Source: Liolophura sinensis (lineage: Eukaryota > Mollusca > Polyplacophora > Chitonida > Chitonidae). Taken from it: a DNA stretch of 64,000 nt. A program made the translations under genes and the position numbers. Shown here in pieces: positions 40,901 through 46,900 of the stretch. Numbering within the stretch: position 1 is the first letter of the stretch; each line of letters begins with the position of its first letter. The stretch is from assembly GCF_032854445.1 (NCBI RefSeq), contig NC_088300.1, positions 35,075,608 to 35,139,607 of the forward strand. Direction: 5' to 3'. The notes under the pieces are model-generated. The model was not told where the DNA came from. It saw nothing but the letters and a program-made list of their open reading frames with translations, and did not search any database.

Positions 40901-43900
40901 CAATGAAAACATCTATCATCATTATTTCTACACTAACCGTACACCATGTACGCTTGCTACATGATAATGATAAGTTGATTTTGGTCCCTGTATTAGGCTG
41001 CATAAATACTATAAGTCTAAATTTGATTTAACAGATTAATTGTTTATTAGTTGTTCGGTTAACATTTTTTTGTGTTACAGAAAAAAGTAGCACATATTTT
41101 CTGCCAGTAGAATTGCAGTTGTTGATTTAATCTAATTGATTAGATGCTGTGCTTGCGAATCTTGTTGTACAAGTGTTATTACCCTGTATTAAATCAGTAA
41201 TGAACTGCAGAAGCAAACTGGTGCAGCAGACATGCACTAGCAAATGGTAAGTGTGGCAAGAATCAACAAATGATAGTGCTAGATTCAAGCAGAAAAAATT
41301 GGAGCCAGTAATGTACAAGAGGGTTATTTAAATGTGTCATTTTCGTCAAAGAACCCAGGGCATCTGTTCACGGATCCCAAAATTAACGACTTTATATCCA
41401 TTCCTATGGCAAGAGGACACTGAAACCGGGCTTAGTGATACTAATTATCAGAACAATGAGTTTTTCACAATACCTACATTCACCTTAGTGTGTTAAATGG
41501 TTTCTAAGCATCAAGATTATCAGCACCAAACAGAGTGATTGTGTATACTTAAAATGACAAGTGGTGGAACTCTGTTCTTGCTACTGCAATTTGGCACACT
41601 TTTGGTATTGTGTTACATGTTTTCTACCACCATCTTTGATTTAAATAGGGTGTCCTGTGTGCAACCCTGGCTCAAACATCCAGTTTACTGTGAAGTTTTA
41701 CCACAAGCACCCCCTGCCAGCGTTCTGTGGGTGTGTCATCTATATACTCCTGTACTCTCTCAACGCTGATCATCTGCTTCTCTGTCTCTGTGAACGAGGT
41801 GACCACTCCACTGAGCAGGTTAGTAATGGACAATGCATAGGTGATAGCCAAGCCCACAAGACCTGAAGGCAGTCGAAAAACACAAATGTTTATTCATTTA
41901 TTTATTAGATTGTAGTCTTTGGCATGGTACTCAAGAACACTTGAGATACCGCAACCAGCATTATGGTGGGAGGCTTTTTAACAAACACCCTTCTGAAAGC
42001 AAAGGCAGAAAGAGACAATTCCTATTGCAAATGACCAAAGATACTGACAAACGTATTTAAGATAGTCAATTTGTAACAGTTATTTTCATGCATCTTCCCA
42101 AGACCCTAGAGATGCAGTCCAATCCTGAAGTATTTATATTTATACATTTACAATTTTATCTGTAACTTGATTCGTTACAATAAATCAATCTCATACTAAT
42201 CTTTGTATGAAATGTCTCAACAGCTGCCAGATCATTAGGAGAAATACCAGTTAAATAACATTTATCACAAGATATCACAGGACTAAATGAAATAAGACAT
42301 ATGACCTTAAACTTCATCTGTGACGAAGTTACCAAACCTGAGAGTTCCACCGATACAGGAATATTTCAGTGACAAAACTAATGAGATTATTGGCCTCTTG
42401 AAGGGCAATTCCACAAAAATTACCGGGATTTACTGTTCTGAAGTGATGTTCCAACACAGCTGTAAATGCAACACCTGTTACCATGGCAACCCCTAGCAAC
42501 TGTAGACGGAAGCTTAGCCAAGCAGACACAGCCTTAGCAGCAAACTGTGCTCTCTGATTCAAATCTAAACGACGTTCGTTTTCTTCTCGGAACCTGAGAC
42601 ACAAAAAGAAACAGTAGCAGTAGTCAATTATTTACTAACATTCATGTATATCTGTCAATCTTTTGATGGAATGAAAAATGTTCACTCATACAAGATTTAT
42701 TTATTTATTTGACCATTGTTAAAGCCATACTCATTTCTCCATTATACAATGGCTAGCTTTATATGTGGAGGAAAAAGCTGAGTACCTGTGGTAAACAACT
42801 AACAGTTGTTAAGTTCATGACAACTTCATGTGATATACAGATATAAGGTATTTCTTGTTTACCAAGGCCCTACAAACAGTGAAAGCAGGGAAATGTACAA
42901 ATCCAGCTCCCCTCCTCCAGATTCAGTTTGATTGCCTGATTGTTGCTTCACACCAAACTCAAAAATTTTTCAGTTTTACAGGTGGAGGAAAGTGGTGTAC
43001 TACTGTTTCAATGCACAATTTATTACTGATCATAAGTCATTTAACAGCATGGTCCCTTTATCTTTAAATAATCTGTCACCATATTACAATATAATTACAA
43101 TATAAAAGATTAGAGCCTGTTATGAGATATATTTTCTGTCTGTAATTAAAATTGACACCAAATACCACAATTCGGAACAGAAGCTCTTCTCCCTAAATAC
43201 CTGTCTGTGTGACGGAATGCCCGAATGGTGGCTAGTCCTCCAATAGTCTCTGAGAAATGAGCATAGATTGGTGAAAGCGTGACACTGGAGATTCGTTTGA
43301 TTTCCCGGGATGTTTTTCGATAATATTGCTGAAATAAACAGCCAAAAATTAGATTACATTGACATATCCCATTTTTTTATATGATTTTAACAGAATTTAG
43401 TGCACTAACACGAAATCTTCACCATGATCTACCACCTAAAACCTTAATAACTGTAATTAAGAAAGACATAAGTAAATTAAGTATTGAAATTCTTTAAATT
43501 TTCAGCTTATTCAGATCACTGATTTGGTGGTTTGTGCATGTTAATGAAAATTGGTACTTGTATTTCTTAAATCTGATGCCTGAGGGCCACAACCTCCACA
43601 TACATAAATATTCTGCGCAAGCAGACTTTCTCTGGGCTGTCTGACCAACTTCAAGTAACTGACCCTCACCTGGACAAAGTAATAAAATGTTACCAGCAGT
43701 AAACCCCACCTACCCAAGGTAGTAGACTGTAACCTGCAATAAATCTTACCTGAACAAAGTAATAGACCTGCAATAAACCTCACCTGAACAAAGTAATAGA
43801 CCTGACATCAACCTCACCTGAACAAAATGGCAAACTGTAACCACTGTTAAACCTCACCTGAACAAAGCCATTGACAATGACCAGTATTAACCCTCACCTG

Positions 43901-46900
43901 AACAAAATAGTAAACTGTGACCAGTGGTTAACCTCCCTAGAACAAAGTAATTCTGTAAGATGGATCGGGTCAGACCACGTGATCTCCTTAGCAACAAATG
44001 GCGTGGGTGAAGAAAACAGCCAGCCCAGTGTTACTGCATAGGAAAATACCTATATTTGAATCACTGTCAGTGATCTTGTGTCCGTTGGATTGGTATAATT
44101 TCAGCTCTCCACATAGCCTGAGTATTTCTGCAGAGCTTTAGTGACGTTATTTTGACAACTAGGCCTTACTGGTCGCTAGCGAAGTGGCAAAAAGTGACCA
44201 TTTCCTGGATGCTTTAACATTGTGCAGCCATATTGTTTTAGACACGAAAGGGTGATCACATGACCCCCAAGTTCTGACCTGTCTTACACAATAAACTGAC
44301 TTGTGTTTCAACCTTGTGACAAACTTGTACAAAGCCATAGATTGTGACCACTGGTAAACCTCACATAAACTAAACAGTAGGACTGTGGCCAGTGGTTAAC
44401 ATCACCTGAACAAAGTAATATACTGACTTGATCTAACCTCACCTAAACTAAACAGTAGACTGTGGCCAGTGGGTAACCTCACCTGAACAAAGTAATATAC
44501 TGACTTGTTTTAACCTCACCTAAACGAAACAACAGACTGTGGCCAGTGGGTAACCTCACCTGAACAAAGTAATATACTGACTTGTTTTAACCTCACGTGA
44601 ACGAAACAGTAGACTGTGGCCAGTGGTTATCGTCACCCGAACAAAGTAATACACTGACTTGTTTTAACCTCACCTAAACTAAACAGTAGACTGTGGCCAG
44701 TGGTTAACGTCACCAGAACAAAGTAATATACTGACTTGTGTTTCAACCTCACCTGAACAAAGCCTTAGACTATGACCAGTGGTAAGCCTCACCTAAACAA
44801 AACAACAGACTGTGGCCAGTGGTTAACGTCACCTGAACAAAGTAACTTGTGTGTTTCAACCTCACCTGAACAAAGCCATAGACTGTGACCAGTGATAAAC
44901 CTCGCACTGTGACCAGTGGTAAACCTCACCTTGGCAAAACAGTTGACTGTGATGAGCGGTTAACCTCACCAGATCAAAGTAATTAATACAAAGTCCAGTG
45001 TTTATAACTCACCTGAACAAAGTAGTAGACTGTGACCAGTGGTATAAGGAGGAAGGAGAACCAGGGCAGTCCATAACAGGTGATGGCCACACTGCCCAGA
45101 ATACCAAACATCTGAGCTAACAGGATGTTGAGGATGAAGGGCAGGGCATCGTCAATTGAGTACATGTCTGAGGAGAAGCGATTCACGATTCGTCCTATTG
45201 GGGTCCTGTCAAACAGTCCTATGGGAGCCTGTGGCAAGACGTTAAAGTATCAAATAGGGTAAATGTGGTAGCAGCCCTGAGAATGTCATACCATGATGTC
45301 TGAGCACAACACAATGGGTCAGTTGTTCACAAATGTTCAATCCTGACTCACCTTAAGAATAGCAGCAAGTACGGTCTTGTGAAGAGCTTGAGCAGCTCTT
45401 ATACCACCATACGCATAGAGAAATGCCCTGAACAGGGTGAAGAGGGAATTTCCCGCAGCTAAGCACCCATAGACAGTCAGGTAGAACATCACGTTATCCT
45501 CTGCTTCTGTCACATTGCGCATCGACTCATTTGACAGCACAGCTTCCTCCCTAAAATTTAAGAAATAAGGAGTCTGTGCTGAAACTCACAATACTACTTT
45601 CCTCAAAGTACAAATTTCTCCTTTCTATTTTCATCCAGGTTTCCACCCACCATAATGCTGGCCGCCGTCGTATAAGTGAAATATTCTTGAGTACGGCGTA
45701 AACACCAATCAAATAAATAAATAAATAAATATTTTCACCCAATACATTTTTTTATTTCATATCTCTGCTTGTCACCTGTCGATTCATTTGACAGTGCAGC
45801 TTGCTCTCTGAAATTTACGAAATAAGGAGCCCGTGCTGAAACTCAAAACATTACTTTTCCTAAATTACAATTTTTTTTTTTTTCATCCACACTTAAATTG
45901 TCATCTTGAAGCTAAATTGAACAGCTATCATGTAAGTTCCAAATTCACAGGGGTTCCTCTTTTTGTGATCTATTTCAATATTTATGATTATCTGTGATGA
46001 GTGTGTCCGCAATACCGACCTGTTTGTTAGGAGAAGAGGATGGTAGCTGAGCAGTGAATGTGCATTGTCAGGGACTGGCTGGGGAATACTACCATTAGCT
46101 CTAGGAGATTTCTGGTGATGAGCATGGGTCACCCAGTAAGACAACCACCAGTCATTGATATTTCTAGAGGCTGCAATGTTCACAAGGGCACACACAATAT
46201 ACGCTACATGTAAATACAAATCAGCAGAAATAAATACCAATAATGCAACAGCACACTGTAAAGCAGTAAAGTAAGTTGTGATTGGGACATAACTGGACAT
46301 CAACACATATTACATCTCAAATGACACTGAGGTAAGTTTTCAAGGTACACTAAGTTTTAACCTAGGTAATAACTTTAAATTGGACAAATGTTCCAGTTCT
46401 TATGCATTATTACATTATATATAAATTATGTATGTAATGCACTTTATTTATTTATTTATTTGATTGGTGTTTTACGCCGTACTCAAGAATATCTCACTTA
46501 TACGACAGCGGCCAGCATTATGGTGGGAGGAAACCGGGCAGAGCCCGGGGGAAACCCACGACCATTCGCAGGTTGCTGGAAGACCTTCCCACGTACGGCC
46601 GGAGAGGAAGCCAGCATGAGCTGGACTTGAACTGACAGAGATCGCATTGGTAAGAGGCTCCTGAGTCATTACACTGCCCTAGTGCGCTAAACAACTGAGC
46701 CACGGAGGCCCCTGTAATGCACTTTGATATGGTACATAAACTAACAACACCCACTTATTTCAAAATGCACAAATATTAAAATTTTTATATATTTATTTTG
46801 TACCTTGCATCAGGAAAAGTGCCAATAAAATGAAGGAAGCTAAACAATTCCCCACAGCCTTCCAGTAGGACTTGTACACGGAAAACTTCACTACACCAGT

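What the first reader, a model, noticed from the sequence alone, without database searches (positions are those of the whole stretch)
43664..45012. ABCC10 intron 11 is built from tandem copies of its own exon-11 5' splice site
The intron begins with about 24 degenerate units that each repeat the last ~33 nt of exon 11 (coding VTVYYFVQ) and the donor CAG/GTGAG. Many units keep a good donor, so the real splice site is followed by a run of decoys of the same sequence. One unit even keeps the reading frame through FYYFVQVRV near 43700. This could cause alternative donor choice, buffer donor mutations, or be a neutral minisatellite born at an exon edge. I know of no described case of this scale.
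Basis: seen in the sequence. Interest (0 to 1): 0.75.

Follow-up and report, generated by a model that had tools for sequence, protein, structure and literature searches.

The report
Chiton minisatellite copying a splice site
In a chiton's transporter gene, the end of one exon with its splice signal has been copied about 24 times in tandem inside the next intron; such "mirage" repeats were known from amphioxus and one human gene, and a small sample suggests they are common in this chiton.

Summary
On the minus strand of a chiton genome (Liolophura japonica by assembly statistics), the 1684-nt intron after an ABCC-transporter exon holds 24 degenerate units of mostly 33-41 nt that repeat the last 30 nt of the exon plus the first 10 nt of the intron. 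23 of 24 keep GT; the 40-nt edge has 22 copies against at most 3 in 500 random sequences. A dispersed element lies within the array.

"No described case" does not hold: boundary-spanning "mirage" minisatellites are published from amphioxus, and the human CBS 31-bp repeat has the same design. This is a new member of a known kind.

New here is frequency. Among 134 other exon hits from four gene families, 8 donor and 2 acceptor edges are copied the same way. Arrays cover 17-20% of sampled non-exon sequence and come closer to donors than to acceptors.

Best reading: a tandem duplication across the exon edge, amplified as an ordinary minisatellite and tolerated because the exon-side donor comes first and here has the best U1 match. 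Extension to any decoy meets an in-frame stop, so decoys could not restore normal protein if the donor were lost. Decoy use in RNA was not testable.

The parts
45013..45228 (-).
   Evidence: All 72 residues align with TMD2 of ABCC2 (E 1.3e-13), residues 1-71 with ABCC4: the repeated exon tail is old coding sequence
45003..45042 (-). Seed of the array: last 30 nt of the exon plus first 10 nt of the intron, with the real donor CAG|GTGAGT at 45013|45012
   Evidence: U1 duplex -11.7 kcal/mol, the best of the places listed
44315..45002 (-). Proximal block: 16 units with a donor core (decoy donor G at 44969 to 44364) plus one more degenerate unit (44354-44315); 77-bp period at 44357-44801
43972..44288 (-). 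Dispersed element (about 317 nt) lying between the two blocks; ends look like imperfect inverted repeats by eye (not tested)
   Evidence: 40 places scored of 567 first-look candidates, itself included; the others 82-87% identical
43660..43971 (-). Distal block: 8 units (decoy donor place 43937 to 43669), among them the most exon-like one (43897, 0.88)
43329..43659 (-). 3' part of the intron without units, with acceptor TTTATTTCAG
43201..43328 (-). Next exon ([15 protein letters not shown]...); its donor was placed by eye

Best explanation
A 'mirage' minisatellite. A short tandem duplication crossed the 3' edge of the exon (about 30 nt exon, 10 nt intron). The copy fell on the intron side, was free to change, and amplified by slippage or unequal exchange to about 24 units, partly as a 77-bp two-unit block; a dispersed element lies inside it and the units are decaying. 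The exon-side copy stays intact because it codes for a transmembrane segment and carries the used donor. The array is tolerated rather than used: the first donor is the nearest to its exon and here the best U1 match, and transcripts extended to a decoy would carry a stop. The same process has acted on other introns of this genome, with donor edges apparently more tolerant than acceptor edges. Shown: anatomy, exon origin, decoy donors, stops, other cases in the genome. Inferred: the duplication mechanism, use of the first donor, neutrality.
For: Copies far above random and permuted controls. The exon tail is ancestral coding sequence, so copying ran from exon to intron. Real donor -11.7 kcal/mol, the 24 units -4.6 to -11.6. 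All 24 units differ from the real edge at +6 and +8 (ungapped). Each listed decoy extension contains a stop; the first lies 9 codons after the donor and the nearest decoy at +43. One search found no other place for the array (that search skips very common words). Other cases: 8 of 134 donor edges and 2 of 134 acceptor edges. Array coverage outside exon hits 19.8% and 16.5% in the two samples; in the first 50 nt beyond the HMM hit 7% and 11% on the donor side, 0% and 5% on the acceptor side. In the 8 sampled donor cases 1 of 89 decoys could extend the exon in frame without a stop. Amphioxus Adh3 and globin mirages are reported not to interfere with regular splicing (PMC3087553, passages).
Against: No RNA evidence, so use of the first donor is inferred. 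23 of 24 GT remain although units average 70% identity to the edge; units are not independent, so this is only weak evidence for retention. In 7 of the 8 sampled donor cases at least one decoy equals or beats the real donor in U1 strength (the exception is L057), so 'best U1 match' is not a general rule. Identity to the exon edge does not fall with distance (Spearman 0.01, P 0.95), so the order of birth cannot be read off.
Confidence: 0.8

Rival explanations
1. Regulatory decoys: the run of donors binds U1 and tunes splicing, or makes a nonsense-mediated brake on the transporter through decoy use.
For: 23 of 24 units keep GT and nine reach -11.6 kcal/mol, nearly the real donor; decoy use would add a stop, as a poison extension needs.
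Against: Donor columns are not clearly more conserved than neighbouring core columns. Similar arrays lie in unrelated genes of the same genome. No RNA evidence, and no orthologue could be compared.
Confidence: 0.1
2. 5' splice sites are favoured birthplaces of minisatellites in this lineage, rather than merely tolerant places.
For: 8 donor against 2 acceptor cases. Tandem CAGGTRAG triples occur 3351 times in the genome, against 672 for the reversed string and 1089 and 773 for a transposed control and its reverse. In sample 2 the loose test was positive at 8 of 72 donor searches but at 28 of 1390 and 13 of 1342 deeper intron positions (few positions had room for the test).
Against: 8 to 2 is not significant (P 0.11). 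In sample 1 deeper intron positions were positive more often (600 of 3666 and 995 of 3740) than donor searches (5 of 62). Array coverage is lower next to donors than deeper in introns. In the five CAGGTRAG arrays that I fetched (L002-L006) I recognised no same-strand exon edge (by eye; ORFs listed only for L004 and L006).
Confidence: 0.08
3. Assembly or sequencing artefact.
For: Tandem arrays are prone to misassembly; an amphioxus mirage appeared aberrantly assembled in a draft genome (PMC3087553, supplementary legend seen).
Against: The assembly is from PacBio HiFi reads of mean 8,347 bp at 14x (PMC11068029, passages), far longer than the array; the units are diverged and a dispersed element lies between them. 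Raw reads were not seen.
Confidence: 0.02

Closest known systems
Amphioxus 'mirage' minisatellites (Adh3, globins BflGb6 and BflGb9, PGBD5)
   Same: Tandem repeats whose unit spans an exon-intron boundary; many units keep splice signals; 5' and 3' boundaries both affected (PMC3087553, PMC3902484, passages)
   Different: A mollusc rather than a cephalochordate; about 24 diverged units here against 3 and 6 in the two BflGb6 haplotypes; here also sampled across four gene families
Human CBS 31-bp VNTR, c.1444_1467+7(16_21)
   Same: By its name a unit of 24 nt exon plus 7 nt intron, so a donor in each; 16-21 units (PMC2630376, passages); listed as exon 13-intron 13 (PMC1395315, passage)
   Different: CBS units are invariably 31 bp with single substitutions, and the array is polymorphic; here units are mostly 33-41 bp and strongly diverged, polymorphism unknown. 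Alternative splicing at the CBS repeat is recalled, not seen
Intron gain or change by tandem repeats at exon edges (human, PMC2812944, passages; potato RdRp, PMC4974935, listing only)
   Same: Tandem repeats at exon-intron boundaries that add splice sites
   Different: No new intron is evident here: the acceptor end of the intron carries no unit
Intronic minisatellite of abalone TSSK1-like (27-bp unit, intron 3; PMC6905558, passages)
   Same: A long, length-variable minisatellite in a molluscan intron
   Different: The passages do not say that the unit copies an exon edge

Membership tests
Mirage minisatellite (exon-intron boundary repeat) | Tandem units span a real exon-intron boundary | tested here: met
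   22 copies of the 40-nt edge against at most 3 in 500 Markov sequences; 22 of the 22-nt edge against at most 4 in 200 permuted edges
Mirage minisatellite (exon-intron boundary repeat) | Many units keep splice signals | tested here: met
   23 of 24 units keep GT (one off-register match dropped)
Mirage minisatellite (exon-intron boundary repeat) | The exon side is real coding sequence | tested here: met
   The 72-residue exon aligns end to end with ABCC2
Mirage minisatellite (exon-intron boundary repeat) | Regular splicing is not disturbed | not testable with these tools
Mirage minisatellite (exon-intron boundary repeat) | Length instability between alleles or cells | not testable with these tools
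   One assembly only
Intron gain by tandem duplication | The repeat supplies both donor and acceptor of a new intron | tested here: not met
   Units end near 43660; the acceptor at 43329 lies in sequence without units
ABCC (MRP) transporter gene | Homology to ABCC transmembrane domains | tested here: met
   ABCC10 in particular not tested

The most novel reading that the evidence does not exclude
Splice-site minisatellites are a genome-wide feature of this chiton: several per cent of donor edges are followed by tandem copies of themselves, often with decoys as strong as the real donor. That would make thousands of natural duplicated-donor experiments on how the spliceosome picks a 5' splice site. 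The boldest form adds that 5' splice sites are preferred birthplaces of minisatellites in this lineage.
Probability: 0.5. Interest if true: 0.65.

Novelty: new member of a known kind. Interest (0 to 1): 0.45.

Why it matters
The single array is a good example of a known kind. The sample of other exons matters more: if several per cent of donors in a chiton carry tandem copies of themselves, published RNA-seq could show directly whether the spliceosome takes the first of many near-identical donors, how often it errs, and how exon edges survive beside unstable DNA. It also extends mirages from cephalochordates to molluscs. The listings that I saw in my literature searches showed no molluscan case; they were capped, and the library lacks most subscription journals.

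Tried and rejected
Tandem CAGGTRAG as a genome-wide detector of mirages: the motif is 3-5 times commoner in tandem triples than the controls, but in the five arrays fetched from the start of C1 (L002-L006) I recognised no same-strand donor mirage (by eye), so I do not count it as evidence. Only the first places of each list were seen.

Cases looked at and not counted. L004 (annexin) begins next to an exon donor and looked like a mirage by eye, but its edge has 0 copies. L026, L077, L089 (donor) and L078 (acceptor) were flagged automatically; their edges, placed by eye, have 0 copies. L090 was flagged, but I could not place a donor and ran no edge test. L043, an array 14 nt or so inside an intron, has 0 copies; L032 has 1 copy, which 2 of 200 permutations also reached.

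Sampling. ABC_membrane: 49 hits listed, 25 chosen for fetching, 24 counted, one dropped because it ran past its locus end; the window's own gene left out. Annexin: 42 listed, 38 counted (35, 3 in L004). Myosin head: 81 listed, 58 counted. Aldehyde dehydrogenase: 14 listed, 14 counted. Total 134. ABC was chosen because of the finding and annexin because of L004; the other two were not prompted. Automatic flags: 5 donor and 0 acceptor of 62; 8 donor and 3 acceptor of 72. Kept after reading the sequences: 3 and 5 donors, 0 and 2 acceptors. An earlier, looser run on sample 1 flagged 6 of 63 donors and 0 of 63 acceptors. The test takes the best of several GT or AG places per edge, and some hits do not end at a real exon edge, so the rates are rough.

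Edge test of the kept cases (200 permutations each): copies against largest permuted count are ABCC 22/4, L015 27/21, L017 9/3, L037 12/3, L054 16/6, L057 4/1, L061 7/4, L069 9/5, L083 5/1, L063 18/17, L073 2/1; none of the 200 reached the observed count in any. In earlier runs L017 was 9/8 and L063 18/18, so L063's margin is thin.

Donor excess over acceptors: 8 to 2, P 0.11; suggestive only.

Papers on minisatellites and splicing in C. elegans (PMC4039745) and on human tandem repeats (PMC2812944) were seen in passages; only the second is close.
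Full report
What is there. The window lies in a genome of 609,464,459 bases and 632 contigs. The contig number, the longest contig of 96,433,062 bases and a contig of 37,343,639 bases equal the scaffold number, longest scaffold and N50 of the published assembly of the chiton Liolophura japonica; its total, 609,495,693 bases, is about 31 kb larger (PMC11068029, passages). On the minus strand runs an ABCC-subfamily transporter gene: a 553-residue ORF matches MRP1 and other ABCC proteins, and the exon in question (45013-45228) aligns over all 72 residues with ABCC2. 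The name ABCC10 was not tested.

The intron after that exon is 1684 nt, from 45012 to 43329. Its first four fifths hold 24 units that repeat the last 30 nt of the exon and the first 10 nt of the intron. A 25th place listed is off register and was dropped; one further degenerate unit (donor place 44324) appears only and is not counted. The 40-nt edge has 22 copies at >=22/40 identity, against a mean of 0.33 and a maximum of 3 in 500 Markov sequences; the 22-nt edge has 22 copies, against a mean of 0.11 and a maximum of 4 for 200 permuted edges. Identity of the 24 units to the edge ranges from 0.50 to 0.88, mean 0.70, and does not depend on distance (Spearman 0.01, P 0.95). Units of two kinds alternate in the middle, giving a 77-bp period at 44357-44801 and higher identity at lag 2 (0.709) than at lag 1 (0.598). 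Between 16 proximal and 8 distal units lies a dispersed element of about 317 nt, for which the search scored 40 places of 567 candidates, itself included, the others 82-87% identical; the array is therefore probably older than that insertion. No other place in the genome matched the array (a search that skips very common words).

Decoys. The real donor CAGGTGAGT has a U1 duplex energy of -11.7 kcal/mol. Of the 24 units 23 keep GT, and nine reach -11.6. All 24 units differ from the real edge at +6 and +8 in an ungapped comparison, so either the real donor or the founder of the array changed after the first duplication. The frame that leaves the exon meets a stop after 9 codons, before the nearest decoy at +43; decoy use would give a truncated reading frame, probably degraded (inference). 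Donor columns are highly conserved among units, but so are several neighbouring core columns, so I see no sign that decoys are purged or specially kept.

Is it unusual in this genome? I sampled exons found by Pfam models: 24 ABC_membrane, 38 annexin, 58 myosin-head and 14 aldehyde dehydrogenase hits, 134 in all. The first two families were prompted by the finding or by an early lead; the last two were not. A loose test flagged 13 donor and 3 acceptor edges. After reading the sequences I kept 8 donor cases: L015 and L017 (ABC), L037 (annexin), L054, L057, L061, L069 and L083 (myosin); and 2 acceptor cases, L063 and L073 (myosin). In an edge test all ten exceeded each of 200 permutations, L063 only narrowly (18 against 17), and five of the six dropped cases had no copy of their edge, while the sixth, L090, was not tested. 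That is 8 of 134 donors (6.0%, 95% interval 2.6-11.4%) and 2 of 134 acceptors (1.5%, 0.2-5.3%); in the unprompted set, 5 of 72 and 2 of 72. L017 is striking: its 91-bp unit carries about 80 nt of exon with the donor (by eye), and all 9 copies in reach have a donor as strong as the real one. In 7 of the 8 donor cases at least one decoy is as strong as the real donor or stronger; L057 is the exception, and in L054 it is 1 of 16. Of 89 decoys in these eight cases one could extend the exon in frame without a stop.

Why at exon edges? Tandem arrays are very common here. They cover 19.8% (sample 1) and 16.5% (sample 2) of the sampled sequence outside the exon hits and 1.6% and 2.6% inside. In the first 50 nt beyond the HMM hit, which may still be exon, coverage is 7% and 11% on the donor side and 0% and 5% on the acceptor side, rising to about 15-23% and 16-20% further out. 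The loose test was also positive at deeper intron positions: 600 of 3666 and 995 of 3740 in sample 1, but 28 of 1390 and 13 of 1342 in sample 2, where few positions had room for it. The two samples thus disagree on whether donor edges are hit more or less often than deep intron. The simplest model is that arrays arise throughout introns, that exons resist them, and that donor edges tolerate them better than acceptor edges, plausibly because a copy on the intron side of a donor leaves the first donor in place, while a copy upstream of an acceptor puts a new AG nearer the branch point (inference). The donor excess (8 to 2) is not significant by itself (P 0.11). A genome-wide excess of tandem CAGGTRAG triples (3351 against 672, 1089 and 773 in controls) hints at a special link with donor-like motifs, but I recognised no same-strand mirage in the five arrays that I fetched from it, so it stays unexplained.

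What is known. Repeats of this design are called mirages in amphioxus: Adh3, globin genes and others, with AG/GT signals kept in many units, length instability, and no reported interference with regular splicing (PMC3087553, passages; PMC3902484, passage). The human CBS gene has a 31-bp VNTR of 16-21 units that by its name spans 24 nt of exon and 7 nt of intron (PMC2630376 and PMC1395315, passages). Human tandem repeats at exon-intron boundaries can make new introns (PMC2812944, passages). A molluscan intronic minisatellite is described in abalone, without mention of an exon edge in the passages seen (PMC6905558). The present array is a new member of a known kind; the listings seen showed no molluscan mirage.

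Verdict. The array is most likely a tolerated minisatellite. The part worth following is the apparent frequency of such arrays in this genome, which makes donor choice among near-identical copies testable with published RNA-seq.

Noticed in passing
L017 (C11:2418100-2420400, minus strand, array from about 1450 on in that orientation): An ABC_membrane exon end is copied as 91-bp units with about 80 nt of coding sequence plus donor; 9 copies in reach, all with a donor as strong as the real one.
   Followed up: partly
L073 (C1:67511100-67513950, about 1210-1480): Three tandem copies of an acceptor with about 45 nt of myosin exon; which acceptor is used cannot be told from DNA.
   Followed up: partly
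L063 (C2:5377900-5380050, about 300-607): Short units that repeat the pyrimidine-rich tract, AG and first bases of a myosin exon: an acceptor mirage, though with a thin margin in the edge test.
   Followed up: partly
L004, L005, L006 (C1): Arrays with CAGGTRAG in many units lie near exons that seem to be on the opposite strand (L004 by Pfam; L005 and L006 by eye only), so in gene orientation they read CTYACCTG, like the U1 5' end (recalled). Such triples exceed controls 3-5 fold genome-wide. Unexplained.
   Followed up: partly
G000 contigs C99 and C632: COX1 occurs seven times on C99, at about 15.5-kb spacing, and once on C632, so the assembly seems to hold concatenated mitochondrial genomes.
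   Followed up: no
window 7080-8054, 9784-10426, 39143-39473: Other minisatellites in the window: 19-bp x 51, 64-bp and 79-bp arrays; the last lies between exons of the same gene, not at an exon edge by eye.
   Followed up: no
window about 46440-46630, 51030-51355, 57300-57570; L003 about 270-540: Copies of a short dispersed repeat that give similar ORFs (containing RRTQEYFTY) in several places; a similar stretch is in L003.
   Followed up: no
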